From positions 20,703,808-20,767,807 of the forward strand of contig NC_088301.1 of the NCBI RefSeq assembly GCF_032854445.1: DNA of 64,000 bases, written 5' to 3'. Below the pieces are notes generated by a model, which saw only the letters and a list, made by a program, of their open reading frames with translations, was not told where the DNA came from and did not search any database. Shown here one piece after another: positions 3,901 through 49,705 of this stretch. The stretch comes from Liolophura sinensis (Eukaryota > Mollusca > Polyplacophora > Chitonida > Chitonidae). Every line of letters starts with the position of its first letter. Positions within the stretch are counted from its first letter, which is position 1. Made by a program: the position numbers and the translations under genes.

Positions 3901-4178
3901 CCACAAACTTTCACAATCATAAACATAGCGTGCGTTTTGAGAGCGGCACAAAACTTGATGATTCGACACACAGCGCTAACAGCGATCTGCCTTCCAGGGG
4001 CCCAGATCCAAAGATTGGTGACCTCTTGTCTAGCCAACTTCACCCTGATGTCTTGGATGCCACAGTGGAAGTGAGACGACTTAGGCAACAAATACGAGAT
4101 GACCTGGTAAAACAGCAGGAAGATACGGAAGACGACATTCACTACTTGAGATTGAGACAAAGCAAATGTTTGAACTGA
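910..4178 (+). CDS. unrecognised disordered protein, last two exons
   Basis: Two exons join in phase. Exon 910-1024 lies between a pyrimidine-rich TTTGCATATCCAG acceptor and a GTGAGT donor (38 codons, entering in phase 2, leaving in phase 0). Exon 2676-4178 follows a TTACCTTTTTCAG acceptor (500 codons plus TGA). At least 538 residues are visible and the N-terminus lies further upstream. The protein is rich in Ser, Thr, Glu, Asp and Lys, with many SP, SSP and SES clusters, so it is probably disordered and phosphorylated. It ends in a short charged helix with coiled-coil spacing (EVRRLRQQIRDDLVKQQ, roughly the last 40 residues). I recognise no catalytic domain and no family. The evenly open 1.5-kb frame and clean splice phases argue that it is real. 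A scaffold or cytoskeleton-linked role would be a guess. Confidence 0.7.
1048..1292 (+). repeat. tRNA-derived SINE, type 1
   Basis: Copy of the commonest repeat in the window. It has a tRNA-like head (B-box-like 'gtgagttcaagtcc'), a GC-rich middle ('ctcccgggctctgccc' here) and a conserved 3' end ('gaaatattcttgagta') closing with ATAAA repeats. It lies in the intron between exons 910-1024 and 2676-4178. Confidence 0.8.
1332..1560 (-). repeat. tRNA-derived SINE, type 1, inverted
   Basis: Opposite-strand copy about 40 bp from the plus-strand copy at 1048-1292, more diverged. The two form an imperfect inverted repeat within one intron and could fold into a hairpin in the pre-mRNA. Confidence 0.75.
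1561..2039. other. intron, no feature seen
   Basis: Intronic sequence between the inverted SINE pair and the pyrimidine-rich minisatellite. No exon or recognised repeat was found. Confidence 0.5.
2040..2487 (+). repeat. pyrimidine-rich minisatellite, about 24-bp unit
   Basis: About 18 tandem copies built on 'ctttctgttttccttggy' with 'ctctact' or 'ctcaact' spacers. The plus strand is almost pure C/T except for G in TTGG and CTG. Copies vary by single bases. The array ends about 190 bp before the last-exon acceptor at 2675. Open frames across it are products of the repeat. Confidence 0.9.
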
Positions 4179-23747: not shown

Positions 23748-24460
23748 ATGACAGATGCGGAGGAATACCGGTATGGCGTTCACCTAGCTAAGTGCTCCAA
23801 CTCCTCATGCGCCTGTATGCATATTCAGGAACGTTTACACGACGGCATCAAAACACTGGGTGTGACAACGGTGGTGGGTGATAGTGTATACTCCAAGGCT
23901 GGGTCGCGAAGTGACGAAATCCTCAAATACGCCGGACAGAGTTTGTTTACAGTGATTCCAGCATGTCGTGACGCGACTGTGAGTTTCCAGTACTGCTTTA
24001 CCAAAGCACCAAAGAGCCTCACTGGTCGATTCGTTGTGGTAATGTCGGAGCCAATAAAAATTCCACCATTTCTAAAAGATTTTAATTGCATTCCTCTTTA
24101 CAATGTTAAAGAAACGAACGAGTACACCAGTCTCATAACCTGGTTTGACAATAATGTGACACCGTCGCTAAGAGTTACTCGCAGACCACCAGTTCGAGTC
24201 GTCCCTAAACCTGTGCCTGATCGGCCCTCTCAGATTGTATCGGAGTACAGAAGACCAGAACCGTTACCTGGTGAACATAGCGTCCATTTGTCCGTGGAAA
24301 ATGAAAGTAGCACTTACACCTCCGACTCCCTGTCCACCCTTGGCACTGAAGGAAGAAACAAGTTTGTGTCTCTGCCAAGCCTAGAGATCTTGGAGCATCC
24401 GGACAGCGGACCAACTGCCCGTCAATATTGTACTGACATAGATGATTGCCTTAGGACTGA
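23748..24460 (+). CDS. exon 1: TIR-like domain and linker
   Basis: The ATG has A at -3 and an in-frame TGA lies 27 bases upstream within the same exon, so this start is well supported. Residues about 8-125 fit a TLR/MyD88-type TIR fold. The candidates are VVGDSVYSKAGSR at the box-2/BB-loop position, LFTVIPAC as a core strand, the FVVVMSEPIKIPPFL strand (TLRs show a similar LLEPI) and LITWF near box 3. Box 1 is weak. The WCxxE glutamate of NADase TIRs is absent (YCFTKA here), so an adaptor role is more likely than NAD cleavage. A Pro/Arg-rich and Ser/Thr-rich linker follows. The donor is GTGTAA at 24461 or GTAAGC at 24463; reading past it enters repeat DNA. Confidence 0.7.
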
Positions 24461-27400
24461 GTGTAAGCGTAAATTATTATCATTTATTCATTTGTTTATT
24501 TATTTGATCCATTGGTGCTTAGTTCTTCACTTGTTCGATAGCTGTACGAGTTTCATCGTACAGAAGTTTCCCACATGTGACGTACAGATATTTATATACT
24601 GATGGAAGAGAAGTGGTCTTAAGCGAACATCAGACAATGTAATCGGCCACAGGTTTTTGTGGACCAGTTAGTGTCACCAATGCCCCATAAGCAACGTGAG
24701 CTTATCCACGAGAGCCCTCCAAGGATGACGCACTACAGACTGTTGTGGGGTAGTGAATAAAAAGCAGTCCTGTTCACTAGAATTATTCAAAATAGTGCCA
24801 TAGATTACTCGCTGATGATTGGTGGAACAGTATTCCTCACCACAACTCTTCAAAATTCAGTGTGCCATAGATTAACCACTGGGTCCCAGGAGCCTCTGAT
24901 TCTGAGCTCATTGTGACTTCCTCTCCGGTCGTCAGCGGGAAGGTCTGGCAGCAACCTTTGGATAGTTCACGACCTCTGCCGAGTTTACTCCCACCATAAG
25001 GCTGGCTGCCGTCGTATAAGTGAAATATTCTTGAGTACGACCTAAACAACAATCAAATAAAATAAATAAATATTAGCCATTGGTGATTGGTGCCTTATTC
25101 ACTAGAACTCGTCAAAACAGATCTGATATAAGTTTCATTCTTCCCGGCTTAGTTTTCAAAAGTATAGATCTGTACCCTTCCATTCACCAGGCTGGAGCTG
25201 GGCCTTTTCGACTGTGCTGCAAAAGATGTACGCTGTGAAAGCAGGATTCTTTAATATTGCAATAATTGTGACGTCATAGCGCGTGAATAATAAAGATTAT
25301 AACGTCACAATTGACTCGAATGTGACTGGCGCATCCACTGCCAGCCGAACAGCCACTTTCAAATCTATATTCGACCGCAGTCGACATCGTCCAGACGATG
25401 AACATCATTGAAGGACGATACAAACGACTTTGAGGGTCTTACTTTTATTAGTGTGAAAATATATGAAGAGAATCAACTAAATGCAACTATTGAGAAAAGA
25501 AAAGATTTTTATTTGGCAAGAGCAACAGGGTAAGAGTCCACACTAGCACCGAAGATACATGTGAACTGTCGGTTTCGCGTAGTTCGGATGCTGCCCGAGT
25601 AGATACGTCGGTTACATACTAATTACGACGTTCTGGTCATTATCATTCAAGCTGGTGATATGAAATTAAAATTACTTCAAGGCCTCTTGAAACCTACGAG
25701 GTGCCATGTTGACTTTTGAATATAACACATGGGACAGAACCGAGTTTTGGTTTGTGAATATGGGGATTAAGAGGGGTTACTGTGAAAGCTAAGCATGACC
25801 TATTGATCTCAGAGCTACGAAATGGTGTGTTATTGATTAAGCCTCTGTCGTGGTCGGTGGGAATGCAGTTCTTTTCGCTCTTCAAACTCTTCAAACATTG
25901 AAATAAAACTTTAGTGCTGGCATAGTCAATAAACTATGTGTATTAGAACTTTCATAATCAGTCATTCACTCATTAGAACTTTCATAGTCAGTTATTAATT
26001 CATTAGAACTTTCATAATCAGTCATTCGTTCAGTAGAACTTTCATAGTCAGTTATTCATTCATTAGAACTTTCATAGTCAGTTATTCATTCATTAGAACT
26101 TTCGTAATCAGTCATTCGTTCAGTAGAACTTTTATAGTCAGTTATTCATTCATTAGAACTTTCATAGTCAGTTATTCATTCATTAGAACTTTCATAGTCA
26201 TTTATTCATTCATTAGAACTTTTGTAATTAGTCATTCGTTTATTAGAACTTTCATAGTCAGTTATTCATTCATTAGAACTTTCATAGTCAGTTATTCATT
26301 CATTAGAACTTTCATAGTCAGTTATTCATTCATTAGAACTTTCGTAATCAGTCATTCTTTCAGTAGAACTTTCATAGTCAGTTATTCATTCATTAGAACT
26401 TTCATAGTCAGTTATTCATTCATTAGAACTTTCGTAATTAGTCATTCGTTCAGTAGAACTTTCATAGTCAGTTATTCATTCATTAGAACTTTCGTAATCA
26501 GTCATTCGTTCAGTAGAACTTTCATAGTCAGTTATTCATTCATTAGAACTTTCATAGTCAGTTATTCATTCATTAGAACTTTTGTAATCAGTCATTCGTT
26601 TATTAGAACTTTCATAGTCAGTTATTCATTCATTAGAACTTTCATAATCAGTCATTCGTTCATTAGAACTTTCATAGTCAGTTATTCATTCATTAGAACT
26701 TTCATAATCAGTCATTCGTTCAGTAGAACTTTCATAGTCAGTTATTCATTCATTAGAACTTTCATAATCAGTCATTCACTCATTAGAATTTCATGATCAG
26801 TCATTCATTAGAACTTTCAAAATAGTGTACTGTAGGGTATGTGGTTAGTCAGTGAATGTTACACTAAAAAAATAATCTATGAAATTTAGCAGAAGTCTGT
26901 TATCTGAGTGACGCTAGAAAGTGTTCTGGTCTTGCAGCAGATTATGTTATATATAGCATGCATATTCCTTTAATTCAACATGAAAGTGTGTTATAATTAC
27001 AGAATTCATTATAACATTACTCAAACAAAAGACATTCTCTTAAAATTAACAGATTATTTTTTTGTGTGTAGGTCGTTCTTTGGATTAACATGCAGCATGT
27101 GAGACATTACTATGATGGTAAACTGATATTTTGGTTTGTAGTTAAAAACGATCTACAAGAAGGGAGGTTCCATTTGGTATTTAACCACTGTGACTCAGCG
27201 GCAAAAAAACGAGATGGGGTTCTCTACGCCTTGCAGACTTTTAACAAGCGCACGTTGCCTTTTCCATTATCCTACGCGGCCCAGCTTCTGAGATGCAACC
27301 AGGAAAATCTCCGGCTTCATGGGCTGAGCTACATCGAGTACAAACTTCTCAGATGGGATGCGTACCTGAAAAGCGGAGAGTTTGAAGACCTAATGACACT

Positions 27401-30400
27401 GGAAGGTGAATTGTTTGAAGTACTGGCGGATCCAGGGCCCATTGGGCAGTTCAATATTCCTCAGGTTTCGCATATCGCCGGGTTATACATGCTGTGTCTG
27501 GCTGTTATTCGGGATCATTTTGATCGTGACAAAACTGACCAACATAAACGTTTCAAGAACTTTCTGAAGGAACGGCAATTCCAGATTGATGAGGAAAATG
27601 ACCGAAACTATTATTACAAGGCCCTTCAGATCATTTTACGCGAGGCTTTTGAGAAGGGAAACAAAGGAAGTGTGGCCAGTATTCTTCAGTTCAAGACTAC
27701 CTTGAGAGACGTAAGTACTCAATTGTTCAAACAATCTGGGGAAGGATAATTGAAGGATACATAAGTCCTTTAGGATGTATCCAAACACGTGAAAGTACAA
27801 AAAAATCTGCGGTCGTGACGTCAACAATAATAGATGTCAAATCAACACTGTAGGCGGAAGAGTCCAATTGCGTGGAGCTTAGCTGTTTCCAAATTCCGAC
27901 CAAATCTCAGATTATTAACTGATAATATGCACGAAATAGAAAGGATGTTAAAAAGTATAACAAAGATCCTCAAAGATGAATTGACATATTTGTCCTCCTT
28001 TTCCTTAAAACCATAATCTTCGTTTTAGAGTTTCGTTTCATGTATCCTTAAATTCACTAGAGCTGCTAAATGAACCGTTAAATAGGTAGTGCACTTCATT
28101 AATCACAAGGGGCCTCCGTGACCGTGGTCTTTATCACTCCAGCGCGGCGTAATGACTCAGGAGCCTTCTCGCCAATGTGATCAGTGTGAGTTCAAGTCCA
28201 CCTATCGCTGGCTTCCTCTTCGGCCGAAAAAAGAAAAAAGTACTGCAAAGAATAAAGATCTTTCGACCATATTTAAAAAGTAAAATGAGAAACTCGAAGC
28301 AGTTTTATATCATATCGAAGATATGGCTACTTTATAGACGGCTATTGTGCTATTGTGAGCGGAAGTTTAAAAACATTTCTTTGGAGATTTTTTTCTTTCT
28401 CTTATTTTCGATGTTTACACTTTAGTTTCAGAGAGACCACACCCATGCGTCTCTTCAAGATTTAAAGAAGGTTACAGAACGGACTCTGAGGCAAACTTCA
28501 ATGTATAAATTTCGAAATCGTGAGGCCCGCAAGATGGAACGGATGTTAACGTACCAGGTCATCGTAAGGGCCGTCGTCGCCTCGCTCAAGGACAAATGTG
28601 GCACAGGTATAGATTAGGATTACATTAATCTTAGCGATTTTTGTAACACATTTAGGAAAAATGTGAATATGTATGGTGTTCTTGTTTTAACACCTTTTCT
28701 TCATGGTCAGTGTGTACTTGTCATGTCATCATTTCATTTGTCTCTGACTGGAATCCTTTACGCGCAACTCTCAGTCATGAAGTAGTTAAGTTCACGAGTC
28801 AATGCCGGGAATGTGGAGATTCACACATTGCGTACAGCGCGTGTGCCGCTCCCTACGCTCTCGTCCACGCTTTACGTCACTGCCACCATTACACAAGCTT
28901 GACTTTTGGAGCCTGTACGGCGCATGAAGTCGTGTTAGGAATAGCCTAACCACCCATATCCTTACGCGAGACTACTTGATCAACATTCAGTAATAAGGTA
29001 ACCGTTGTTTCACGTATTTTCTAGAATCATGTATGCACACCTTAAGAGGATGCATGTGTATAAATTATCACTGAAAACAAAAATTGAAAAATTGAGTTTT
29101 TGTGTTTTCTGACATAACTTCCTGCCTCATCGCTGAGCCCAGTGGCTTCGGCGTTGTTCAAGATTTCTGTACAAATTTTGCTAGTGGTGGCAGTGATCTA
29201 AAGTGAACGTAGACATCCGCGCATGCGTTGTAAGGAGGCTCCTTGCTCTCGTTCGGAGGTGACAATAAATGGCGGACGGCTCTAGTGTATAATTTTCATT
29301 GAATACCGCTTGTTTTGAAATCCATCGATAAAGCTTCCACGTTTGTACATCACGTGTAGGAATGTTCATTTGTTACCTACCTAAGGTGGGTGGTTTTACC
29401 AAAAACATTCTGGTTTCTTCAGCATATAAAACTGACTTTCAGTGTATAAGTGAAATACCCTTGAATATATGGCTAAAAACGTTTTAAAAAGTCAATGAAT
29501 TAAATCATGCAATAAACATTTATCAGTTAACGCACCTAATAAGGTCTATGGAATAAGGTAAAATGTAATTAGTAAAGGTTTATTTGGAATATCATGTGAC
29601 AGTTAGAACACCTAATAAAGCCTACGGGATGAAATAAAATGTAATTTGTAACTGTTTATTTGGAATATCATGTAGCAGTTAGCGCGTCTAATATGGAATG
29701 AGGTAAAATGTAATTAATAAACAGTTTATTTGCAACAGAGCATATCATATTGCGGAATGCGGAACTTTTGCAGGAAAGGTAATGAACCTAACGTTTGGTA
29801 TGTAAAATGAGCTTTCAGCAGCACATTATGGCCTTACAATGATACGTCTGATCACAACATTCAACTTTGTCTTATCACAAATTAATCACACTGTACAAAA
29901 GATTCTTAAGAGGCTCTATTAGGTACAGGAATCAGTCAGAATCAAGCAAAATGTATCACTTGATAAAAAAAAGTCAACTTTAGCTGAAGTAAAGCAGCAC
30001 CACCTTACTCTCCCCTGTGCAGATCAGCTTTATTTGTCTAGGAATATAAGTCCCTTGGAAGTCTCTGGTGTATGCGGTGTGTCACAGATATTACAACAGA
30101 ATTCTTTGGTCTCGGATACTCATTGTCACTGTCATGATGTGCCCATTAAGATTTTGGTGCAACTTACAATATTCTGTGAAAAACCTTAGGCACAGGTTAA
30201 TTTCCTAATTAATCAGCTATAAACCTTTTAAAGCTTTATAATAAGTAACAATGCTAATGACTAAATTATTTGGTATCGTGTTTGATAAACATTTTCGACA
30301 TATCCTCGTCACTTTTTTTGATATACAGTGTGTAGGATATATATATGTATATATATATTTATTTATTTATTTATTTATTTATTTATTCCACTGCTGTTTA

Positions 30401-33400
30401 ACGCCATATTCAAGAATTTTTCACTTCTACGATAGCCATCAGTGTTATGGGTGGGAAAAACCGGTGGGCCCGGGGTAAATCACTTACCTTTGGCAAGTTC
30501 CTGACGAACTTGACCACATGTGACGTACAGGCTTGCGCACTATATTGGTGAAGAACGAGTGATCTTCAAAGAACGTTAGACTGTGCAACCGGTGACACGA
30601 CCGTTGCCGACCGTCTGTTGTCTACCAGGGAGAGCAGTGAGATTGTATGGAAGTAAGAATGAGTGTTATGCCGGAAGCTAATGATACAAAGCTAAAGGCA
30701 GATTTTGGAATGTCAGGAAGTTCTTTGGCACACACTTAAAACACCAACAACACATATAAAATAAATACTTAACCATTCAGCTTCAGAATCAGCCTACGAC
30801 AGCCATGAGATAGAGTTGCAATCCAACAGTGATTTGCTGGAGCTCTTACAATTCTTTTCCACACAAGGCATCAAGGCAACGTCAGTCGTCTGGCAGGAAC
30901 AATTCAAACAAGAGCTCTGTCCACTGCTGTTTCACGACAGTGCAAAAATTGTGAAGTGTATTCGCCAGATCGTGCAGTATCCAGTTATGTCGCCGAAAGA
31001 AAGAGAGCACCTGCTTCTAGGGCACTTCTTGGAGCTGTTCTCCACGGTGGGTCTTGAATGGAGAGGCGCCTACTCTGGTGAGCTAAGTAAGGCCGAAAAG
31101 TGTCAACGATGGAAACACTACATAGGCAAGATTGGGGGCAGCAGGAAACCTGCTGGTGCACTTGTTTCTATCATTTTCAACGGTTACTCACCCAGCGATG
31201 ACTGCTCAGAAATGTACAACTACGGCCTTGATGGAGATAGAAAACGTAGAACCGAATGTGAAATCCTTGGACATCTGGGAGAAAGCAGTTTGATTCTTCA
31301 GCTTTACGCTGTTAATTCCTCCTCGGGTAAGTTTTTGTACGTTATGGAAATGCCGCCCGGTGGACCTTTGCAAAAGTTCCTCTTAGAACGACGCTCACAG
31401 AAAAACTGGCTCTTATTGCAGGAGTTGATAGACATTGCAGTACAAGTGATCTGTGCCATCGAATACTGTCACAGAAAACAGATCATTCACCGAGACATCA
31501 GGACTGAGAACTTTCACTACTGTAAGGCTGACCGCACCTTGAAGCTCGATAACTTTGGGATCGCCAGTCACTTTCATGGTCCGGACGTCACCGGTAAGTC
31601 CTTTATTGCTTTCTGTTCTCCATGCTAGCTTTTAGAATTTGTCGCTAGGACTACAGCCATCGTCGGCCATCAACATCTACGCTTCGGTGTTCTTGGAGGC
31701 CTCTGTGGCCGAATTGTTTGCGTGCTAGCGCAGGACAATGGCCCTGGAGGATTTCACCAGTGTGATCGCTTTGTGTTCAAGTCACGTCGTGCTGGCTTCC
31801 TCTCCGGCCGTACGTGGGAAGATCTGCCAGCAACCTCCGTATATTCTTGGGTTTCCCCCGGGTTCCGCCCGGTTTCCTCCCACCATAATGCTGGTCGCTG
31901 TGGTATAAGTGAAATATTCTTGAATACGGTATAAAACTCAAATGAAATAAATAAATCAATGCTCGTGTTAAGGTAAATCAATTAACAAGCAGGTCATATA
32001 CGTCACATTAATGAGTCCAAACCTTGTTATGTTCAAAGTTCTATTTTCTGGGATCGCCAGTCACTGTATGCTTCAGTTTGCATGCAAACTTGACTGTGAT
32101 GCTGGGTGTAGACATTTAACAATTTGCATTACTTTTTAAATCCATCAAGTATCTACCGCTGGTGTGGCTATTACATGTACATTGTCTTCCATCTTACTTA
32201 TTTTAATATAGCCCGGTTATCTCTCATCATAATGCTGGTCAGCGTTGTATAAGCTGAATATTGTTGAGTACGGCGTAAAACTCCAATAAAATTGATAAAT
32301 AAACATTTTAATATACGGACGTCATCTATAGTGTCAAACTTCTCTTTTCTCAGACGTGAATGCAGATGAGATTGCAACATTATGGTCAAGCCCTGAAACA
32401 CTGAGGGACAAGAGAACTTCGACGAGTTCTGACATTTGGATGCTGGGCCAAACACTGTATGAGTTGTTCATGCATGGCAGCTGGCCGTACTCTCCTCGGT
32501 TGATGACTTTTCCATATGAAAAAGTTATTTATTGGGTATGTGTCGATATAGGCCAAGTCTTATCATTCGTTATAAATGGAAGAAATCGTGAAAGAGTAAC
32601 TTGAATAAGTTTTAAACGCAACAAACATGAAGGCAAAATGAACATAAGCGTCTTTTCCGGCGTTTGTGTGCATGCCGTAATTCGCAGAAAATTTCCTACA
32701 ATCCTAAAAGTTAGGGCCTGAAGTATTGCCCACAGTCTGTTTTAAGTCGGTCCATGTCTCAGTTGTCTGTTTTTGTACCAGAAAGGATCAAACATAAACT
32801 CTAGCGAGAACCACTGTTGCCCAGTTTAGTTTTTATGTTTTGGCGTGTAATTCAAAAAAAGCGGTAAAGTGTGTTAATTTTGAAATGGCGATGCCGAATA
32901 CAGAGGCTCTAATATAGGTATTAATGACCTTCTGACCAAATATTTTTAGTCTGGCACGATGTAACATGTTCTTAACGCTATGCGCTCTGAAGATACTGAC
33001 TCCTTCACATCTCCTCCTTATCATATCCTCCACAGATCGCATACAAAGGAATCAAGCCCTTTGAATCATCAGGATGCATTCCTCCTGAAATTTGTAGAGC
33101 GATTCTCACCTGCTTGGAAATGGAAGAAGCCGAGAGACCAACAGCCACGAGCCTGCTTTCGCACTTTGGGGATATGCAGTCTGAGTATCACAATAGTAGG
33201 TGTTACAACTATTCATTTCAATTCTTCTAAACTTTATAGCAAATAATTTTTGTAACAGAGGTCTATCTTTCTTCGAGACTTCACCAGAAATGCTTTTCAT
33301 AACAGAGCCCTGTATTTCTTCTAGACCTCACCCGCGGAACTTTTCATAATAGAACCCTGTATTTCTTCTAGAGTTTACTTGAGGTACTTTTCATAACAGA

Positions 33401-36400
33401 GCCCTGCCTTTCTTCTAGACTTCACCCGAGGTGCTTTTCATAATAGAATCCTATCTTTCTTCTAGAGTTCACTTGAGGTACTTTTCATAACAGAGCCCTG
33501 CCTTTCTTCTAGACTTCACCCGAGGTGCTTTTCATAATAGAATCCTATCTTTCTTCTAGAGTTCACTTGAGGTACTTTTCATAACAGAGCCCTGCCTTTC
33601 TTCGAGACTAACCGAGCCCTTACATTCTTGGAAACTTCACCTGAGGTACTTCTCTTAATAGAGACGTATCTTTCTTCGAGACTTTATATGAAGCACATTT
33701 TGTAACAAACAAGTCTTTCTTTGATACTTTATATGAAGTACATTTTGTAACAGAACCTAGTCTTTCTTTGATACTGTAAATGAAGTATTGTCGTGTCAGA
33801 ACATTATTCCAAGTTGAGCATTCCTCACTGTATATTATGTTATCCACACTCTTTACCGTCTAAAGACCACTTGTGTAGTGCACACCTGTAGGTCAAAGGT
33901 CGGTGATTTACGCTGAGCCCTCCTGTTTCCCGCGCATTTTAAACTGACCGCCATCGCAAAAAAGCAAAAACGATAATGCCGTTAAACAACAGTCAAATCA
34001 CTTTATTGATTTATTGATCTATTTATTTATTTATTTAATTATTTATTTCTTTATTTCATTGGTGTTTGATGGCGTTCCCTTAGAATATTTCACTTATACG
34101 ACAGCGGGAACGCCTCCGTGGCTCAGTTGGTTAGCGCGCTAGCGCAGCGTAATTACCCAGGAGCCTCTGACCAATGTGGAGTCAAGTCAAGCTCATGCTG
34201 GCTTGCTCTCCGCCCGTACGTGAGAAGTCTGCCAGCAACCTGCGGATGGTCGTGGGTTTCCCCCGGGCTGCCCGTTTTCCTCCCACCATAATGCTGGCCG
34301 CCGTCGTACAACTGAAATATTTTTGAGTACGGGTAAAACACCAATCAAATAAATAAATGAGTAAATATACGACAGCGGCCAAATTTATAGTGGGAAAGGT
34401 GTAGGATACGCCCAGCAGAAAACCACGTCTGTCCACAGTCTATTGGAAGACTTTCCCACGTGAAACAATCAAATGAATATTAAAAAATAAACAAATTCTG
34501 CTGATAGGCAACTGATCCGTTTGAACAGAATGATAAAAATGCCTTTGGTCGTTGACAGATGAGGTGCAGATCCCTCATGTGAACATGGAGCAGCTGCCTT
34601 ACCCGCGTCTGTGTAAGTTTCAGGTTGATCGAGCATCAAAGGCAATTAAGGTGAGTTACAAGGATTTATTGATTTATTGATTGATCATTGCGTAATGAAC
34701 AGTGAGATCAGGGGAATGAGAGCGAATGAACAGTATTGTGAAAAAGATGAGTGCTCTGCTCTGTAAATGCAACACACAGACAGCTGTATAGAATAGCTAC
34801 ATAAAAATGTGGTCCTGAAAATCAACAACGTTTCAGGCATCAGGGCCAGTATTTATCAAGCAGCCTAAGACTTGAGTCACAAATTGCATGTCCTTAAAAA
34901 GCCAAACTCGGAACACGAAAGAACTTAAACTGACTCAAGTTAAAGTTTCGTGACCCTGGGGCCACAATTAAATCGCCATCTGAGCTCCTGTTTTATTCAG
35001 TACGCATTTAATGACATCATCGGAATTTAACACTCTGAACAGTCAATATTTGGTAATGGTTAGGCATGGTGTAACGGAAGCCTTGGAACATGTCATTTCT
35101 GAGGGGAGGGACAGGCCTACAGGTGCTTGAAAGGAATGTTTACTCAATTGAAGTTGTACGAACGAGGACATATCTAGAAATTGTCATGACAAATCATGTA
35201 AATTAACTTTTGCTTTCAGGGAATCCCGCCTGAACTGTCTTTTCCTGATTCACCAGACGGTGAGTACATGTGTTCTTATAGCCGAGAAGAAACTACCTTT
35301 GTGTATTCAAGTCACTGACAATTAACAGTCATCAGCTTTTTTGCTAAGTGCCCAGTGGTCATACCAGTAAAATTGTCCAAATAGCTGAACAGAAACTTTC
35401 TAATACCGGTCCTCGTTTCTTCAAATCCAACTCAGACTATACAGTCATTAGGTGTTGCTCAACACTCAGTCGTCATAGCAGTAAAACCGGCAAAATAGTT
35501 GAACAGAAATCGTTAAAGTCAACTGTGTTGGCGTTATTCCTTATTTGTTTTCTATTTTGTTTACTTTTAGTTATATTTATTGCTTTAAATGGTCGTGGGT
35601 TTTCCCCGGGCTGTGCCCGGTTTCCTCCCGCCAGAATGCTATTATAAGTGAAATATTCTTGAGTACGGCGTAAAACACCAATCAAATGAATAAATAAATT
35701 AAAAAATATATTTTTGAGTCAGACCTGTTTCATATCCTTGGTACAATGAAATTTCTGAATATGGAACCTTTGTCAATCGTTGGAATAATGAAATATAGTA
35801 AGACTGTTTTGTTTTGTTTTCTTCGCAAAGTTGTATATTTGCCTTCATTGTATTGGTAATGAATCAAGTGCCTCACTTCTGTTACTCAGGCATAGAGGAA
35901 CATTTCGAGCCAGACCACTGGGAAACTGACTTCATTGAAGACGATGATCCAGAGTTTTCAAACCTGGTAGGTCGGCATTATCAATCCTCATGACATTATA
36001 ACTATAAAACAATAACAACTTTAATTTGTTTATTTATCTATTTAATTGTTGTTTTACGCCGTACTCAAGAATATTTCACTTACACGACAGCAGCCAGCAT
36101 TGTTGTGAGAGGAAAAAGGACAGAACTCGGGGGAAACCAACAACCATCCGCAGGCTACTGACTCGACTCTCCCACGTATGGCCGGAGAGGGAGTCAGCAT
36201 GAGCTGGACTTGAACTCACAGCGACCACATTGGTGAGAGGTTCCTCAGTCATTGCGCCGCGCTGGCGTACTAACTACCTCGGCAACGGAGGACAAATACA
36301 GCTTTTAAAAAGTAATATTATGGTAATTAGGCCTTACAGAGATCCATATATGCGTGCTGTTTTAACTCTTTATTATAAAAAAAATACGACATCGATTCGA

Positions 36401-37804: not shown

Positions 37805-37842
<38 letters not shown>

Positions 37843-43800: not shown

Positions 43801-46800
43801 GCGTTTAGCACAAACAACTAAAGAAGTAAGAAAGTATGTAAAGTGCGAAATTAAGACGAAATTATGTAAAGAGAAGCAGTGAAAAATTTTTAATGATGTT
43901 GTAAAGGCGCAAGGAATGTTCTAGACGAATGAGTGAAATCATTATTATTATTTATACATTATTCAATGTACAATAACTACCATAAATTATCGATAATAAA
44001 ATGATCTAACAAATGGTGCAAGGCGGCACAATATATTAACGTCATCCTCATGTAACAGGTTATCCACTTCAGTTGTGTTTATTTCGATGACTACTTTTCC
44101 AGGAGTCCGAATGGAGCTGTCCAAACCCTGTATTTCTCAGTCAGTACGTAACCAGGGCAATTGACAGAGATGACTCGTTCATTGATGAAGTTATCCAGAT
44201 CTTCAGGGACGTAACCAAAACTCTGACAGAACTCCACAAGAACCGATGCATTCACCGAGACATCTGCGCCAAGCACATTCTGGTTGACCCACAAAGCGGA
44301 CAAGTAAGCATACTTATGACAATAAAAGCAACAATACTAAAAACAAAACGCATATTGATGTCATTAATTTAAGGGTTAACTTTCAAAGGAAATAGGGCGT
44401 CTCCGTGGCCGAGGTTTTTGGAACGCCAACGTGACGCAATGACCCAGGAACCTCTCACCAATGCGGTCGCTGTGAGTTCAAGTCCAGCTTCCTCTCTGCA
44501 GCAACCTGCGGATGGTCATGGGTTTCCCTCGGACTCTGCACGGTTTCTTCCCACCATAATGGTGGTCGCCGTCGTATAAGTGAAATAGTCTTGAGTACGC
44601 TGTAAAACTCCTATCAAATAAATAAATAAATAAATCCAAAGAAATCAGGGCGTTTGACCTTGCCAAACAGCTGTAGAAATCATAGCTCAAAAAGACAATT
44701 TGTCAGAGCACTTTCATGTAAGAATTTGCATATACCATAGAAATCGGAACGTTGTTTTAAAGATTGTTATAAACTGTCCACTTGTCTTCATCGTACATGT
44801 ATATACTTCCATTTGGTGTCTCCGACATACTTGTATGTATGTACATTTGCTCTTCTCAATATGCATGTGCATACTTCCATTTGCTACCCTCAATGCGCAT
44901 GTATATACGCCCATTTGCTGTCCTTAATGTACATGTGCATACGCCCATTTGCTGTCCTCAAGGCGCATGCGTATACGTCCTCTTGCTGCCCTCAACGTGC
45001 ATGTGCATACGTCCATTTACTGCCCTCAATGTGCATGTGTATACTGCCATTTGCGGTCCTCAGTGTGCACGTGTGTACGTCCATTTGCTGCCCTGAATAT
45101 GCATTTTCACACGTCCAATTGCTGTCCTCAATGTGCATGTGTATACGCCCATTTGCTGTCCTCAATGTGCATATGTATACTTCCATTTGCTGTCCTCAAT
45201 GTGCATGTGTATACGCCCATTTGCTATACAACAATATATACATTCACTTGCTGTCTACGATATATTTATGTCACAATCACGCTGATCAGCATATGTTTTA
45301 ATTGACATTAGGCCTGCGTGTACAGAATAGCGCGGGTAAAGCAAATCAAAAGGAAGCATGGAGTCAAAGTTGAAGGTTTCAAAGAAAACTGGTCAACTCA
45401 TGAAAAATTCTTCAAGCGAGTTAGATGGTAAGTTGAACCGACACGTTCTATTCCTATGACTTGCTGATATTATTTCAATTGGCACTGCAGGCCTATTACA
45501 AATAGCTCTGCAGATATGTTGCAAATAGCTCTGCAGATATAATGCAAATAGCTCTGCAGATACACTATATGTACCTCTGGAGATATGTTACAAATAGCTC
45601 TGCAGATATAATGGAAACATCTCTGCAGACATATTACAAATAGCTCTGCAGACATATTACAAATAACTCTGCAGACCTATTACAAATAGCTCTGCTGACG
45701 TATTATAAATAGCTCTACAGACCTATTACAAATAGCTCTGCTGACATATTATAAATAGCTCTGCAGACCTATTACAAATAGCTCTGCTGACATATTATAA
45801 ATAGCTCTATAGTGCAAGTGGCTGACTTCTCCCGCAAAGTTTCGTTGCACGTTTGTGATGTCAAGTCTGTGAAGAAAGCTGACAAACATTCAGCATCACT
45901 CAGCGGTTTCTCACAACAGAGAAGAACCAAAATTTGATCACAGTTACATTATTGGTCCTTAAATACATAACTCGTGAAGTTTTGCGAACTGCCATTTTTG
46001 TATTCCTGAACTTTCATCCAGTTTTAATACAAAGTTTAAAAGTTTTATGTGTTCCTTGCCCTTGGTAGTGTGGTCCACAAGGTCCCCTTCACAGTTGGAT
46101 CATTTGAGGTCTATTTGGATTTAATTCAGTGAAAGAAAGTCCCCAAAAAATTACCTTCCTTTTTCCTTCAAGTTCGATCAGCAATAGAATCAGGAAACTG
46201 CTTCCACGAGTACGACTGGAACAGCAATTTTGATTTTTGGGAAATAGTCAGAAGCAAAGCATAGGTCTGACTATGTGAAAACACTACACTGCTTCCAAGC
46301 ATTTACGTACTGGATTTTCACGCGCCGACTTTGGTTCACAGGTTTCCAGTAGAAGTGCTACAAGACGCATACTACTCATTTAAAGGGGACGTGTACATGT
46401 TGGCAATAACAATCTGGGAGACGTTCAACATCATCAACCGAGTAAGACAGAGGCGCTCATTAACCCTCCCATTTAGCACCATCTCAAAAGATAAGGTGAG
46501 CAAATGATCTGTGGGTAAATACAAATGTAAATCCTTATATTTGTATGGTATCATTTTGCAATTGGTGAAAAATTTCTACAAAGAAATTGTCTTCAATAAT
46601 AATGTGTTATCTTTTGGGCACACAAATAATTTATATTTTATTTATAATTCCTTCACAATAACCTCATATGTTTTATGTTTATCAGTAATAAAGCTGTATA
46701 AGTAGCTGACATCGCCGTCAAAATAAATCAAGCATTCAGGAGATGTATTTGAACACGTGGGCCTGTACAAGTGGTTGACATGGTTTTGTTTTATTGGTGT

Positions 46801-47249
46801 TTCACGCGGTACTAAAAATATTTCACTTATATGATGTAATTAAGACATACAGCATAGAGAGAAGAACTAGAGCAGCTGCGACAGTGTGATAGCTGGCAAA
46901 TGGTCACATGTACCCGGTGAAATACGGCTTCTTGTCAATTTACCTCAGTCAGGGTTTTATTCTAAATGTTCATGTAAATATATAAATAGCAGCAAATTCC
47001 AGCATTATGACGGGAGGTTCCCTGGGGAAACCCACGATCATCCGCGGGTTGCTGGAAGACATTCTAACGCTTGACTTGAACTCACAGCCCCATGGTGCCA
47101 TGGCAACCACATCGGCCACGGAGGGCCCTTAGATGACATGGTTTAAAAAAAAAATAAAGAATTCAGAAGATTTGAGGAGATCCATTTGAATACGTGGGCC
47201 TGAAAGTAGTTCATATCAACCTCAAAGGTAATAAAACTTTCAGGCTCTC

Positions 47250-47294
<45 letters not shown>

Positions 47295-49705
47295 ATTTTA
47301 TTGTCTCTATTTTAGCTATCTGGTCATTTAGCCAAAGGCGCTATTCTGCCTTCCCCCGGGACCTGCTGCCCTAACTGGCTGTATGACGTTATGAAGGAGT
47401 GCTGGAGCACTTCACCTGCGGCTAGACCAACAATGGCGCATGTCAACTTGTGCTTAGAAAGAAGGTGGGTATCCCGTGTGACGGAAACATAAAATCCTCG
47501 CCTCCATGTATATGTAATTTTGGCATGTATCTGAAGCCTGCTTCACCAAGTCACTTCGGGTGGAAGTGCAAAACTATAGTCTTCTTTACAAAACAAAATA
47601 TTTAAAACTTGCTTCTCAAACTTAGGTTAAAGTTAGAATCAGCGGTCAACAACTTATCAATTTTCAGCATGTATATGTTCAGCTTTATGAAATTGGCCCG
47701 GATTTCTAAGAATGTATTCAGTGTTGCTCATATAGCAATCGCATTCTCGCAAAACCTCCTATGAAATTAAGACAGCTTTCTCAAGCAGTTAAACGAGCCA
47801 TCTGTGCCGGAAAATTCACCATTGAAAGGAGGCAGCATTTATGGAAAGACGGTGATAAAAGATTCACAATCTAATTTTCAGTGTAGCCGTGGTCGAGGGG
47901 ATTAGCATGCCAGAGCGGCACAAAGACAAAGAAGCGTCATGCTAGCTTCCTCTCCGGCCGTTAAGTGGAAAAGTCTGCTTGCAACCTGCGGATGGTATTC
48001 GGTTTCCCCCGGGCTCTGCCCGCTATCCTCTCACCATAATGCCGGCTTCCGTCGTATAAGTGAATATTCTAAAGTACATCTTAAAACACAAATCAAACAA
48101 TAAAAAAATCAAAGTAGCCTTAGGGCGCATTCGATTCAATTAAATGGCCAGACCATGACGCATGCACAGTGACTCGTGACGCAGGCGCACTAGTAAGACG
48201 TATCGAACACTTTGTGATTAATGGAGGCATCCATAAAGATGCCTTGCTCCGATGTTGTTCACCCTTGTAAAAACACCTGATCTAATCGTGGCATACTTTT
48301 CCTGTGCTCGTGTCACTCGACATTCATAATCGAACACATCCTAAGAATTGCACGTGGATCAAAGGATAACAGTACGTGAGTGCAGGAAATTGATGACTTG
48401 CTGTGATTTATAGAAACATAATCTGTGACATACAAACATATACATTGTACTTAATCCTAGCTTTTTTATATATTAACTAAAGAAGAAGAAAACATAAAAA
48501 TGATGACAAAATCAGATGGAAGAGCACGAAAACTTGCAAATATGGTCTTTAATATTTTTTTCATTTTTCTCTCCCAGGAAAGAATGGTAATTTGGAAGTA
48601 CTTTTGCATCATGGGATCACCTCTTGGTGTATATCGTCTTTGCGTAATGTTGTTTTAAATAAGGATCTGATGCACGCCTAGTAAATTATCTTAATAGCAA
48701 TGTGTTGTTCATATTACACGTGCATGAAATCTGAATGTTTATGAATATATTCAAAAAAAGTAAATATGAAAATCCAGGTTGAACACATTTTTATTAGCTG
48801 AAGAGACCGAATCCTGGTGCAAATATATTTACTAAACATGTGTTACATCCTCATTTATAAAGTTATAACACTAGGACTATACATACAAAGATTTGGTCCC
48901 AAATACCAAGAGGTGGTTTGCAAGTATCTTTTTCTCTTTCACGAAAAATCGGGAAAAATATTAAAATCCACCTTTACAACTAACTTTTTGGCACTCTTTC
49001 ATTTGAACTTTATTATTTTTTATGATTTCTGCACCTCTGACACTCGTTCTTACTGTCACATACTGTCGCTGGTGCGAAATAATGTTACTTGATTGGCTCT
49101 GATGGTATCACATCACGAGGTGAACTCTCAAGACATGACAGCTTGATGCAGTCTCTTCACAAAAAGGTGAAGGTCATCATAACAAATAAACTTTTTTCTG
49201 CCGCAGCATGTTCAATCGGCAAAAATAAACCTACCGGCTGTCCACATTAGTTTCAGTTTTAAGCTAATCAGGATATGATATCGCTCTGTCTTCTGTTTGC
49301 AGGGAATATATCCCATCATTTGAGTTCAAACGACGAACGGATCTTAACAAGAACAGGAAAGCAAGCTGTTTTCCGCAGGGAGGTAGTATGTGGTTTGACG
49401 GCGAGGATACAGTGCCTAAGAGACCTTACACAGTAGACTTTACCCTCTGCCGCGAACCCTGGGTCAACGACCCAAGCAATCGCTTCACGAACGTTCCAAG
49501 GCAAATGTGCAACAGGGTCGCAAAGACTTTAGCAAATATTCCACCAGTTGATTCCATTCCACAGGCGAATAAGGGGGATCACATGTATGAACAGTTGATT
49601 CCATACGATCCCACTGTACAGCTGGAGGCCGAGTCGGATGCCGCGGTGTATGACGATATCCCGTCATACCATGGGAGCAGTAATGCTATGCTGCATTATG
49701 AGTAG
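23748..49705 (+). CDS. TIR-like plus tandem kinase-like protein
   Basis: Gene-level entry. Coding exons by splice phase: 23748-24460 (end uncertain), 27072-27710, 28432-28606, 30787-31593, 32354-32535, 33036-33195, 34559-34650, 35220-35259, 35890-35966, 37380-37511, 44103-44303, 45312-45427, 46342-46495, 47316-47464 and 49303-49705. From 27072 onward all junctions keep frame over 1,108 codons to TAG. With the TIR exon, about 1,345 residues are visible. Order: TIR-like domain, helical region, kinase-like domain 1, acidic linker, kinase-like domain 2, Tyr-containing tail. No signal peptide or membrane helix is evident, so a cytoplasmic signalling protein is inferred. The tandem kinase layout recalls JAKs, but I see no FERM or SH2 domain, and JAKs have no TIR. 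At least one small exon is unplaced between 24460 and 27072, and one may be missing between 37511 and 44103. The TIR exon could belong to a separate gene. Confidence 0.75.
24470..24660 (-). repeat. diverged SINE-like repeat
   Basis: Begins with TTTATTTA-type sequence and carries 'cccacatgtgacgtacag', shared with the repeat at 30,352-30,560. The apparent extension of the TIR reading frame to 24,602 comes from this repeat. Confidence 0.55.
24880..25072 (+). repeat. tRNA-derived SINE, type 1
   Basis: Plus-strand copy with 'cccaggagcctct', 'acttcctctccggtcgt', 'gtataagtgaaatattcttg' and an ATAAA tail, in the first intron after the TIR exon. Confidence 0.8.
25452..25529 (+). CDS. possible small exon of the TIR-kinase gene
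   Basis: A TTACTTTTATTAG acceptor and a GTAAGA donor bracket 78 bp that is open in one phase only and reads KIYEENQLNATIEKRKDFY. It accepts phase 2 from a donor at 24460. It leaves in phase 2, which does not match the phase-0 start at 27072, so another exon or a different boundary is needed. AT-rich composition means chance is possible. Confidence 0.3.
25947..26815 (+). repeat. 30-bp minisatellite, about 29 copies
   Basis: Unit core 'attagaactttcatagtcag' plus 'ttattcattc'. A second variant ('cataatcagtcattcgttc') is interspersed, giving irregular higher-order pairs and triplets. It lies within the intron between the TIR exon and the helical exon. Confidence 0.95.
26863..27063 (+). mobile_element. 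MITE-like element with terminal inverted repeats, copy 2
   Basis: The left end 'aaaaaaataatctatgaaat' and the reverse complement of the right end 'aaaaaaataatctgttaatt' form the terminal repeat. The interior matches copy 1 at 7084-7341 ('tgcagcagattat'). Its right end is only 8 bp from the AG at 27070-27071 used by the next exon. Confidence 0.65.
27072..27710 (+). CDS. exon: helical region of the TIR-kinase gene
   Basis: Open for 213 codons in phase 0 from TGTGTGTAG to a strong GAC|GTAAGT donor. It opens with a strand-rich stretch (KLIFWFVVKNDL) and then long amphipathic helices rich in Leu, Lys and Glu. I do not recognise the fold. Helical-repeat or bundle architecture is inferred from composition. 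It could be the start of a separate gene (first in-exon ATG at 27090). Confidence 0.7.
27711..28431 (+). other. intron with SINE fragment
   Basis: GTAAGT to TTTCAG intron. It holds a truncated plus-strand SINE head at about 28108-28225 ('cgcggcgtaatgactcagga'). Confidence 0.6.
28432..28606 (+). CDS. exon: charged helix of the TIR-kinase gene
   Basis: 175 bp, in at phase 0 and out at phase 1, between TTAGTTTCAG and GTATAG. It reads as a basic helix (SLQDLKKVTERTLRQ, NREARKMERMLTYQ). Both junctions keep frame with the neighbouring exons. Confidence 0.7.
28607..30351 (+). other. intron with dispersed repeats
   Basis: No exon seen. It holds one dispersed repeat at about 28,815-28,915 (plus) matching 57,525-57,630 (minus), and another at about 29,135-29,230 (minus) matching 56,950-57,055 (plus). 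Further along, 29,385-29,475 is a diverged SINE 3' end, and 29,510-29,740 holds three loose copies of 'aaaatgtaatt...gtttatttggaatatca'. Confidence 0.55.
30352..30560 (-). repeat. diverged SINE-like repeat, inverted
   Basis: Starts with seven TTTA-type repeats, then 'gccatattcaagaa', 'ttttcacttctacgata' and 'acatgtgacgtacag'. It is the same variant as at 24,470-24,660, about 220 bp before the next exon. Confidence 0.6.
30787..31593 (+). CDS. exon: helical segment and kinase-like domain 1, N-lobe to DFG
   Basis: In at phase 1 after CAGCTTCAG, out at phase 1 before GTAAGT. The first part is a predicted helical bundle (LLELLQFFSTQ to HFLELFSTVGLEW). The kinase-like part begins near KHYIGKIGG (glycine loop). 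The beta-3 motif reads ALVSIIFNG with no VAIK lysine. A plausible alpha-C glutamate is in RRTECEIL, and the hinge is FLYVMEM. The catalytic loop IIHRDIRTENF is complete (HRDxxxxN), but the metal-binding DFG reads NFG (LDNFGIA). Loss of the lysine and the DFG aspartate predicts a pseudokinase or a very atypical kinase. Confidence 0.8.
31693..31955 (+). repeat. tRNA-derived SINE, type 1
   Basis: Near full-length plus-strand copy from 'ggcctctgtggccga' to an ATAAA tail, in the intron immediately after the NFG-coding exon. Confidence 0.85.
32212..32305 (+). repeat. SINE 3' end, truncated
   Basis: Only the 3' portion ('cataatgctggtcagc', 'gagtacggcgtaaaactcca', ATAAA tail) is present. Confidence 0.75.
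32354..32535 (+). CDS. exon: kinase-like domain 1, activation segment to alpha-F
   Basis: Phase 1 to phase 0 between TTTTCTCAG and GTATGT. It encodes the SSPETL equivalent of the APE motif and SDIWMLG with the conserved alpha-F aspartate, then LYELFMHGSWPY, a typical tyrosine-kinase-group C-lobe pattern. Confidence 0.8.
32536..33035 (+). other. intron, no feature seen
   Basis: GTATGT to TCCTCCACAG. No exon or recognised repeat inside. Confidence 0.6.
33036..33195 (+). CDS. exon: kinase-like domain 1, end of C-lobe
   Basis: Phase 0 to phase 1. It contains CLEMEEAERPTATSLLSHF, the subdomain XI motif with the conserved arginine (C...RPT). The kinase-like domain ends about here. Confidence 0.8.
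33240..33790 (+). repeat. about 47-bp minisatellite with splice-acceptor-like units
   Basis: About ten units containing 'cttttcataacagagccctg' and 'tttcttctagacttcac', alternating with a variant ('aatagaatcctatctttctt'). It begins about 45 bp after the exon ending at 33195. The 3' units are more diverged. Most units carry a pyrimidine run ending in TAG. Confidence 0.85.
33840..34000 (+). repeat. diverged SINE-like repeat
   Basis: Variant with 'gtcaaaggtcggtgattta', 'ctgaccgccatcg' and 'gccgttaaacaacagtcaaa', related to copies near 53,400, 54,480 and 54,700. Confidence 0.6.
34008..34450 (-). repeat. older SINE split by a younger SINE
   Basis: The minus-strand element runs 34008-34107 and resumes at 34366-34450. 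The interruption carries 13-bp direct repeats (tatacgacagcgg at 34095-34107 and 34366-34378). Confidence 0.85.
34108..34365 (+). repeat. full-length type-1 SINE, nested insertion
   Basis: The best-preserved copy in the window. The tRNA-like head carries an A-box-like TGGCTCAGTTGG, then come 'ccaggagcctctgaccaatg', 'cctgcggatggtcgtgggtt' and an ATAAA tail. It lies exactly between the 13-bp target duplications. Confidence 0.9.
34559..34650 (+). CDS. exon: linker after kinase-like domain 1
   Basis: Phase 1 to phase 0 between GTTGACAG and GTGAGT. It reads QIPHVNMEQLPYPRLCKFQ. No domain is recognised. Confidence 0.65.
34651..35219 (+). other. intron, no feature seen
   Basis: GTGAGT to TTTGCTTTCAG. 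Unassigned. Confidence 0.6.
35220..35259 (+). CDS. microexon, 40 bp, linker
   Basis: Phase 0 to phase 1 between TTGCTTTCAG and GTGAGT. It reads GIPPELSFPDSPD. Its short length would be missed by frame-based searches, but both splice sites are strong and the phase fits. Confidence 0.6.
35585..35702 (+). repeat. SINE 3' half, truncated
   Basis: From 'ggtcgtgggttttccccggg' to the ATAAA tail. The tRNA-like head is missing. Confidence 0.8.
35890..35966 (+). CDS. exon: acidic linker
   Basis: Phase 1 to phase 0 between GTTACTCAG and GTAGGT. It is strongly acidic (ETDFIEDDDPEF), linking the two kinase-like domains. Confidence 0.65.
36022..36290 (-). repeat. tRNA-derived SINE, type 1, inverted
   Basis: Near full-length minus-strand copy from the TTTA tail to the tRNA-like head ('cattgcgccgcgctggcgta'). 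Confidence 0.85.
36291..37379 (+). other. intron, no gene seen
   Basis: AT-rich and unassigned, ending in a strong GTGCTTTTCTCAG acceptor. Confidence 0.5.
37380..37511 (+). CDS. exon: start of kinase-like domain 2
   Basis: 44 codons, phase 0 to phase 0, ending at ATG|GTAAGC. The end of the exon, LSGPISGLIRLTAHTRQQEE then TVM, fits a glycine loop and beta-3 strand. The exon stops just where the VAIK lysine would be, so its presence cannot be judged. Confidence 0.65.
37690..37806 (+). repeat. minisatellite unit left of the LINE
   Basis: A unit (about 37,758-37,805; 'agaacgactaga', 'caagtctttggcatagcc') matches the array at 43,190-43,570 on the far side of the retrotransposon. An (AT)n tract follows at 37,808-37,842. 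Confidence 0.6.
38158..41940 (-). pseudogene. LINE ORF2: endonuclease, reverse transcriptase, RNase H
   Basis: Read from 41940 downwards in broken frames. The endonuclease (41940-41179) has IQETFLK, a CSDFNSHH..WG block, AIDLTL and SDHFPV. The reverse transcriptase (about 40758-39448) has SYRPIALTS, DIEKAYD, NGTPQGSVLSP and FADD. RNase H (39392-38631) has IFTDAS, SAELTAI and SDSLSS, which supply the D-E-D residues. A C-terminal LTGHIPVN..CDYC block ends near 38158. Stops after NGLLSPV (40231) and after FADDKAI (39838), plus frame changes, show decay. Confidence 0.9.
41889..42485 (-). pseudogene. LINE ORF1 remnant
   Basis: 198-residue frame overlapping ORF2 by about 50 bp in another frame, the usual arrangement in this group. 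It contains KFLKKLAAKDYLVACS, which resembles the RNA-binding region of ORF1 proteins. No CCHC knuckle was seen. It is probably 5'-truncated or frame-shifted. Confidence 0.6.
42701..43189. other. probable LINE 5' UTR and flank
   Basis: Continues the retrotransposon direction without a reading frame. I searched it for the missing kinase exon and found none. Confidence 0.4.
43190..43575 (+). repeat. about 45-bp diverged minisatellite
   Basis: Eight or so units with 'ggaacgagaagcctttagaa' followed by 'taacgacaacgacta' variants. Units also occur on the other side of the LINE. Confidence 0.75.
43755..43945 (+). repeat. dispersed repeat, copy 1
   Basis: About 190 bp with blocks 'gttccaggtcaat', 'caattccca', 'gagaagcagt', 'atgttctag' and 'gagtgaaat', matching 57,110-57,295 in order. 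Family unknown. Confidence 0.7.
44103..44303 (+). CDS. exon: kinase-like domain 2, hinge to catalytic loop
   Basis: 67 codons, phase 0 to phase 0, between ACTTTTCCAG and GTAAGC. VFLSQYV fits beta-5/hinge. The catalytic loop is CIHRDICAKHILVD: HRD is kept, but the metal-binding Asn is His (HRDxxxxH). Joined directly to exon 37380-37511, the alpha-C and beta-4 elements (about 40-50 residues) would be absent. Confidence 0.8.
44396..44638 (+). repeat. tRNA-derived SINE, type 1
   Basis: Plus-strand copy from 'ggcgtctccgtggccgaggt' to the ATAAA tail. A short internal segment of the middle domain is missing. Confidence 0.85.
44800..45235 (+). repeat. 34-bp minisatellite
   Basis: About 12 units with 'catgtgtatacgcccatttg' and 'ctgtcctcaatgtg'. 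Long open frames in several phases here (up to 162 codons) are repeat artefacts. Confidence 0.9.
45312..45427 (+). CDS. exon: kinase-like domain 2, activation segment
   Basis: Phase 0 to phase 2. ACVYRIARVKQ lies where DFGLAR would be, so the DFG motif is lost. The segment ends in FKRVRW, the start of the RW-APE motif. Confidence 0.75.
45480..45812 (+). repeat. 23-bp minisatellite
   Basis: About 14 units of 'acaaatagctctgcagacat' and variants, starting about 50 bp after the donor at 45428. Confidence 0.9.
45813..46341 (+). other. intron, no feature seen
   Basis: Unassigned, ending in TTGGTTCACAG. Confidence 0.5.
46342..46495 (+). CDS. exon: kinase-like domain 2, alpha-EF to alpha-G
   Basis: Phase 2 to phase 0. 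With the previous exon it reads RWFPVEVL (APE equivalent PVE), then SFKGDVYMLAITIWETF with the alpha-F aspartate. This pattern is typical of tyrosine kinases. Confidence 0.8.
46780..47128 (-). repeat. SINE, inverted, with foreign insert
   Basis: Minus-strand SINE pieces at both ends. Segment 46,807-46,870 ('atatgatgtaattaagacat') is not part of other SINE copies and recurs at 50,039-50,101. An (AT)n tract lies at 47,250-47,291. Confidence 0.7.
47316..47464 (+). CDS. exon: kinase-like domain 2, end of C-lobe
   Basis: Phase 0 to phase 2 between CTCTATTTTAG and GTGGGT. CCPNWLYDVMKECW followed by SPAARPTMAHV is a strong tyrosine-kinase-group signature (CP..LY.LM..CW...P..RPT). Confidence 0.85.
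47880..48110 (+). repeat. tRNA-derived SINE, type 1
   Basis: Plus-strand copy with diverged head and preserved middle ('cccccgggctctgcccgcta'). Confidence 0.8.
48111..49302 (+). other. last intron, no exon seen
   Basis: AT-rich, ending in CTTCTGTTTGCAG. Unassigned. Confidence 0.5.
49303..49705 (+). CDS. last exon: Tyr-containing tail
   Basis: 133 codons after the phase-2 junction, then TAG. No domain. Short tyrosine motifs (DHMYEQL, LIPYDP, AVYDDIPSYH, LHYE) lie in acidic or Pro context, as in SH2-docking tails. No AATAAA is seen soon after the stop; the nearest noted is at about 51,311. Confidence 0.75.

What the first reader, a model, noticed from the sequence alone, without database searches (positions are those of the whole stretch)
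23748..49705. TIR-like domain and two kinase-like domains in one gene
Seen: a TIR-like exon with its own supported start, followed on the same strand by exons that keep frame over 1,108 codons and encode two successive kinase-like C-lobes with clear HRD, APE-like, alpha-F Asp and RPT motifs. Known: animal TIR adaptors (TLR, MyD88, SARM1) and tandem kinases (JAKs) are separate families. Inference: a TIR to tandem-pseudokinase protein would be an unusual innate-immune signalling architecture. I am not aware of it as a described family, but I could not search.
Basis: partly seen in the sequence, partly recalled or inferred. Interest (0 to 1): 0.9.

Follow-up and report, generated by a model that had tools for sequence, protein, structure and literature searches.

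The report
Tandem pseudokinase gene; TIR claim unsupported
What looks like a single-copy animal gene encodes a protein with two kinase-shaped but probably inactive domains; the immune-type TIR domain claimed in front of them could not be confirmed by sequence tests, nor could its membership in the same gene.

Summary
The kinase half holds up; the TIR half does not. Spliced + strand exons give two kinase domains: K1 (30,787-33,195; Pfam PK_Tyr 9.8e-32) and a K2 C-lobe (44,103-47,464; 1.9e-24). Motifs predict both to be pseudokinases. A 15-exon chain stays open for 1,323 codons, but a K2 alpha-C/beta-4 exon was not found. The 'TIR' exon is a real-looking 291-codon frame, but no TIR is listed by Pfam at E up to 10, and a profile of 22 TIRs from this genome scores it -2.1 bits, with 26 of 200 shuffles of itself higher, while 30 of 30 control TIRs scored 42-155 bits. 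Its join to the kinases is the weakest link: the strongest acceptor (27,072) brings a stop after five codons; the best in-frame one (27,142) is poor. TIR plus kinase in one protein is already described in choanoflagellates (PMC6040629). Most likely: a lone, divergent, JAK-like tandem pseudokinase with an N-terminal region of unknown family and no detected FERM or SH2.

The parts
23748..24462 (+).
   Evidence: 291-codon frame; no TIR match; single copy in own genome
27142..27710 (+). Exon 2 in the in-frame reading (start 27,072 if the strong acceptor is used, then ATG 27,090); unknown family
   Evidence: 225-codon frame; single copy; no Pfam or PDB match of note
28432..28606 (+). Exon 3, continuation of the unknown N-terminal region
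   Evidence: phase and splice sites
30787..31593 (+). Exon 4: end of the N-terminal region, K1 N-lobe to HRD and NFG
   Evidence: Pfam Pkinase 2e-17 for the frame alone
32354..32535 (+). Exon 5: K1 APE-like and alpha-F
   Evidence: Pfam PK_Tyr 1.4e-8 for the frame alone; coding score slightly negative
33036..33195 (+). Exon 6: K1 alpha-G to alpha-I with RPT
   Evidence: no match alone, joined K1 9.8e-32; weak donor
34559..34650 (+). Exon 7: linker
   Evidence: phase and donor score only
35220..35259 (+). Exon 8: linker
   Evidence: phase and splice scores only
35890..35966 (+). Exon 9: acidic linker
   Evidence: splice and coding score
37380..37511 (+). Exon 10: possible start of K2 N-lobe
   Evidence: splice scores; no Pfam match, coding score near zero
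44103..44303 (+). Exon 11: K2 hinge to HRD
   Evidence: Pfam PK_Tyr 2.1e-6 for the frame alone
45312..45427 (+). Exon 12: K2 activation segment without DFG
   Evidence: phase; raises K2 from 74.7 to 86.8 bits; coding score near zero
46342..46495 (+). Exon 13: K2 APE-like and alpha-F
   Evidence: Pfam PK_Tyr 0.0026 for the frame alone, below cut-off; joined 1.9e-24
47316..47464 (+). Exon 14: K2 alpha-G to alpha-I with RPT
   Evidence: Pfam PK_Tyr 1.6e-6 alone
49303..49705 (+). Exon 15: C-terminal tail and stop, with MYEQL and VYDDI
   Evidence: strongest acceptor of the chain; no Pfam match

Best explanation
A single-copy, fast-diverged signalling gene whose protein has an N-terminal region of unknown family (about 340 residues, helix-rich by my reading), then two tyrosine-kinase-type domains in tandem, both predicted catalytically dead, then a tail with YxxL/I tyrosines. 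Most likely it works as a JAK-like scaffold: the N-terminal region docks to a partner, the two pseudokinases act as an allosteric or protein-binding pair, and tail tyrosines phosphorylated by another kinase recruit SH2 proteins. Shown: kinase domains, their order, motif loss in an alignment. Inferred: splicing, docking, tail phosphorylation, scaffold role. Exon 1 is probably an upstream exon of the same gene, but is not demonstrably a TIR.
For: K1 9.8e-32 and K2 C-lobe 1.9e-24 in Pfam PK_Tyr; frame kept over 15 exons; K1 keeps HRD but has NFG for DFG and no Lys at beta-3, K2 keeps HRD but has His for the catalytic-loop Asn and no DFG; best PDB relative of K1 is a 1,173-residue 'Tyrosine-protein kinase' (7t6f, JAK1 by my recall) matched in two kinase stretches; exons 1 and 2 have no second copy in the genome, and K1 and K2 only remote kinase relatives.
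Against: No transcript. K2 alpha-C/beta-4 exon not found. Three exons (32,354; 37,380; 45,312) have coding scores at or below zero. Best PDB hits of K1 include FGFR3 almost as good as 7t6f, and those of K2 are EGFR and FGFR4 before JAK3, so the JAK likeness is mainly the tandem order. A pseudogene is not excluded. The helix propensity of the N-terminal region is only slightly high (1.053).
Confidence: 0.5

Rival explanations
1. One reading: exon 1 encodes a cryptic TIR domain, spliced in frame (24,462 to 27,142, or through a missed micro-exon) to the tandem pseudokinase, so that TIR assembly drives a kinase-like scaffold.
For: The exon looks like alternating strands and helices by eye; 24,462 to 27,142 is open; no credible terminal or 5' exon was found between; choanoflagellate Kinase TIRs set a precedent.
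Against: No Pfam, NCBIfam or PDB TIR match; -2.1 bits and hhalign 0.6% where 30 of 30 controls score 42 bits or more; poor acceptor.
Confidence: 0.15
2. Two neighbouring genes: an upstream gene ending in or soon after exon 1, and a tandem-pseudokinase gene that starts at ATG 27,090 in the exon opened by the strong acceptor 27,072.
For: 27,072 is the strongest acceptor of the exon (99.8th percentile) and is out of frame with exon 1; ATG 27,090 has A at -3; seven AATAAA or ATTAAA motifs lie between.
Against: No 5' exon or terminal exon identified; such hexamers are common by chance; the coding score of 27,072-27,141 is almost neutral (1.09 nats).
Confidence: 0.3
3. A degenerate true JAK orthologue whose FERM and SH2 have diverged beyond recognition.
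For: Tandem kinase order; 7t6f (JAK1 by recall) is the best PDB hit of K1; JAK-type FERM_F2 and SH2_1 were not found elsewhere in the genome, exon by exon.
Against: No FERM or SH2 in the joined N-terminal region at E up to 10. The two genome searches rang in no control genome, so they do not show that a canonical JAK is missing.
Confidence: 0.2

Closest known systems
Janus kinases (JAK1-3, TYK2)
   Same: Two tyrosine-kinase-type domains in tandem, the first a pseudokinase, behind a long N-terminal region
   Different: No FERM or SH2 detected here; both kinase domains look dead, whereas the second JAK domain is active (recalled)
Choanoflagellate 'Kinase TIRs' (PMC6040629, passages)
   Different: TIR not detected here; listed there as Pfam-detected Pkinase and TIR; two pseudokinases here
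Invertebrate cytosolic TIR proteins (ARM-TIR, EGF-TIR, orphan TIR; Aplysia survey PMC9334734, passages)
   Same: Would be cytosolic TIR proteins with unusual partners
   Different: No kinase partner is named in the passages I read; their TIRs were found by domain prediction

Membership tests
TIR domain | Match to a TIR profile | tested here: not met
   None at E up to 10 in Pfam; -2.1 bits and 0.6% against an own-genome TIR profile, controls 30 of 30 detected
TIR domain | TIR fold (five-stranded flavodoxin-like sheet) | not testable with these tools
   Structure prediction switched off
Protein kinase, tyrosine-kinase side | Kinase-domain profile match | tested here: met
   K1 9.8e-32, K2 C-lobe 1.9e-24
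Active protein kinase | beta-3 Lys, HRD, catalytic-loop Asn, DFG | tested here: not met
   K1: HRD and Asn present, NFG, no beta-3 Lys; K2: HRD present, Asn to His, no DFG, N-lobe incomplete
JAK | FERM domain | tested here: not met
   No match in the joined N-terminal region at E up to 10
JAK | SH2 domain | tested here: not met
   No match at E up to 10
JAK | Kinase domains grouping with JH2 and JH1 in a tree | not tested
   Only pairwise PDB hits: 7t6f first for K1, JAK3 among the first 60 for K2
Kinase TIR (choanoflagellate class) | TIR and kinase in one polypeptide without a transmembrane segment | tested here: inconclusive
   TIR not detected; junction weak; transmembrane segments not tested

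The most novel reading that the evidence does not exclude
An animal protein in which a cryptic TIR fold, a helical linker and two tandem tyrosine-kinase-type pseudokinases form one all-scaffold innate-immune signalling molecule, an animal counterpart of choanoflagellate Kinase TIRs.
Probability: 0.15. Interest if true: 0.7.

Novelty: new variant of a known kind. Interest (0 to 1): 0.35.

Why it matters
If the TIR fold and the junction were real, Toll-type assembly and tyrosine-kinase-type scaffolding would be joined in one animal polypeptide, a combination I saw described only in choanoflagellates. Without the TIR, a lone tandem pseudokinase of JAK-like order without detected FERM and SH2 could still help to show how the JAK architecture arose. 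As it stands it should not be recorded as a TIR-kinase fusion.

Tried and rejected
Rejected on sequence: TIR identity. Rejected: direct splice of exon 1 to exon 4 (24,462 to 30,787), which makes a stop. Considered, not supported: bridging micro-exons between exon 1 and exon 2; four were listed, none convincing, and the first overlaps a dispersed repeat. My simple gene-finder was too permissive to trust as a whole; I kept exons with kinase-profile or splice support. Searches for the missing K2 alpha-C exon by pattern and by phase gave nothing convincing. The Chou-Fasman helix propensity of the N-terminal region (338 residues) was 1.053 against 1.015 for strand, so 'helix-rich' is mostly my reading. 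Sub-threshold matches that I take as chance: exon 1 to a short cysteine-rich toxin family (16 residues, E 0.018, 15.8 bits against a cut-off of 25.1); the N-terminal region to three families (best E 0.066) and to PDB chains (best E 0.52); the linker to Sep15_SelM (E 0.0019, 18.6 bits against 26). PHROGs and PADLOC were not searched. Paper searches for TIR plus tandem kinases gave no animal case; one search matched 97,184 papers on two loose terms and says little. Four papers were opened, all by term passages only: PMC2575513, PMC9334734, PMC6321704, PMC6040629; the others, included, were seen as listings.

Full report
The window lies in a 609-Mb assembly of 632 contigs, at C7:20,703,808-20,767,807. 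The species is not known to me; 'animal' is inferred from the 103 or more TIR matches in long frames and from intron-exon structure.

Kinase domains. The frames at 30.8, 32.4 and 44.1 kb match protein-kinase models above the curated cut-off on their own, the one at 46.3 kb only below it. Spliced, K1 reaches 9.8e-32 (110.7 bits) and the K2 C-lobe 1.9e-24 (86.8 bits) against Pfam PK_Tyr_Ser-Thr. For K2 the join includes 45,312-45,427, which fits in phase and raises the score from 74.7 bits, and 47,316-47,464, which carries alpha-G to alpha-I (1.6e-6 alone). K1's best PDB hit is 7t6f, labelled 'Tyrosine-protein kinase' (JAK1 by my recall), matched in two kinase stretches (3.1e-21 in all, best single stretch 48.1 bits); FGFR3 (1.6e-20) and EGFR (2e-20) are close behind. 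K2's best are EGFR, FGFR4 and MST1R, with KIT and JAK3 among the first 60. So both lie on the tyrosine-kinase side; a JAK assignment is only suggestive. In the own genome K1's exon 4 finds 5 other places at E up to 0.01, 26-34% identical; the frames of three of them (L032, L033 and the place of L036, printed as L045) read to me as ordinary Ser/Thr kinases. K2 finds 7 places that are not itself, 23-35% identical. Exons 1 and 2 find only themselves.

Catalytic state. In an alignment with two kinases of the same genome, K1 keeps HRD and the following Asn (HRDIRTEN) but has NFG for DFG and no Lys at the beta-3 position. K2 keeps HRD but has His at the Asn position (HRDICAKH) and no DFG. Both are predicted pseudokinases. 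The alignment holds only four sequences and the K2 N-lobe is incomplete.

Exon chain. Fifteen exons from 23,748 to 49,705 stay open for 1,323 codons with a single stop at the very end. Of the sites ranked, apart from the junction in question, 12 of 12 acceptors lie at the 94.7th percentile or above of all AG sites, and 11 of 12 donors at the 95.1st or above of all GT sites (the donor after 33,195 is at 89.0). These sites were partly chosen by the same scores, so this is consistency, not proof. My splice matrices are recalled approximate animal frequencies; the coding model was trained on long frames of this genome, mostly Toll-like receptors (22,603 codons; the training set grew a little in later calls as loci were added, so scores shift slightly). 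Three exons have coding scores at or below zero. An exon for K2 alpha-C/beta-4 was not found between 37,511 and 44,103.

The putative TIR exon. Its 291-codon frame exceeds the longest frame in 30 of 30 simulated windows (maximum 221), so it is probably coding. Pfam at E up to 10 returns one sub-threshold 16-residue hit to an unrelated family, NCBIfam none at E up to 1, PDB two chance hits at E 0.71 and 1.5. The genome-wide Pfam TIR search lists 103 matches, none in this window. I built a profile from 22 own-genome TIR sequences (28 were cut out; six were dropped because my cutting gave wrong or very short pieces). The first 160 residues of exon 1 scored -2.1 bits; 26 of 200 shuffles of the same residues scored higher (145 of the 200 were reported at all), and hhalign gave 0.6% where 60 shuffles reached up to 2.1%. 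Controls: 22 of 22 TIRs, each against a profile without itself and its near relatives, scored 68.9-154.7 bits and 98.9-99.9%; 8 of 8 taken from the 15 lowest-scoring rows of the Pfam list scored 42.0-123.8 bits and 97.6-99.9%, there with relatives left in the profile. The controls were chosen because Pfam sees them, so a TIR as cryptic as some known adaptors could escape. By eye the exon does alternate strands and helices in a TIR-like way; that is a judgement, not a test.

The junction. The two best late donors of exon 1, 24,271 and 24,463, both leave one base; coding signal runs on to 24,462 and turns negative after it. The three strong acceptors of exon 2 (27,072, 27,237, 27,465) need zero bases. 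Splicing 24,462 to 27,072 gives ...TECRSLD and a stop at codon 244. The best in-frame acceptor, 27,142, sits at the 85.9th percentile, the next, 27,199, at 85.4; an equally good acceptor in the right phase lies within 75 bases of 18.0% of random positions (3,596 of 20,000). That the frames can be joined is therefore weak evidence. Against a split, I found no credible terminal or 5' exon in the 2.6 kb between, which holds a dispersed repeat (24,905-25,075) and a 30-base tandem array (25,942-26,809). I put one gene at roughly two in three and a TIR fold at roughly one in three or less; these are judgements.

What it most likely does. A tandem pseudokinase with tail tyrosines (MYEQL, VYDDI) and no catalytic centre would signal by binding: docking through the N-terminal region, and SH2 recruitment after phosphorylation by another kinase. 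This is inference from motifs.

Literature. PMC6040629 (passages) describes choanoflagellate 'Kinase TLRs' and 'Kinase TIRs' and calls both architectures unique to choanoflagellates in its data set. Surveys of amphioxus, Aplysia and placozoans (PMC2575513, PMC9334734, PMC6321704; passages) describe many TIR combinations; the passages I read name no TIR-kinase fusion. So TIR plus kinase is a known kind outside animals, and an animal case with two pseudokinases would be a new variant, if it exists.

Verdict. A divergent tandem pseudokinase gene, of moderate interest, and unproven in the part that made it exciting.

Noticed in passing
38,158-42,620 (- strand): A LINE-type retroelement in the intron before K2: endonuclease (3.2e-22) and reverse transcriptase (9.1e-16) matches, split over several frames.
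   Followed up: partly
24,905-25,075 and elsewhere in the window: A dispersed repeat: of 31 alignments of 24,300-27,150 to the rest of the window (tandem array left out), 25 were printed and 22 of these start in this stretch. Its frames give recurring peptide pieces.
   Followed up: partly
25,942-26,809: A tandem array of 29 copies of a 30-base unit, open in one frame for 265 codons; it could be mistaken for coding sequence.
   Followed up: no
2,610-4,175 and 10,592-11,800 (+ strand): Two long open frames (522 and 403 codons) upstream; the tested parts, 2,676-4,166 and 10,679-11,800, have no Pfam match at E up to 1 and no NCBIfam match of note.
   Followed up: partly
whole genome G000: At least 103 Pfam TIR matches, many in frames of 600-1,200 codons and in clusters, such as on C13, C11 and C4: a large Toll-like receptor expansion by my reading.
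   Followed up: no
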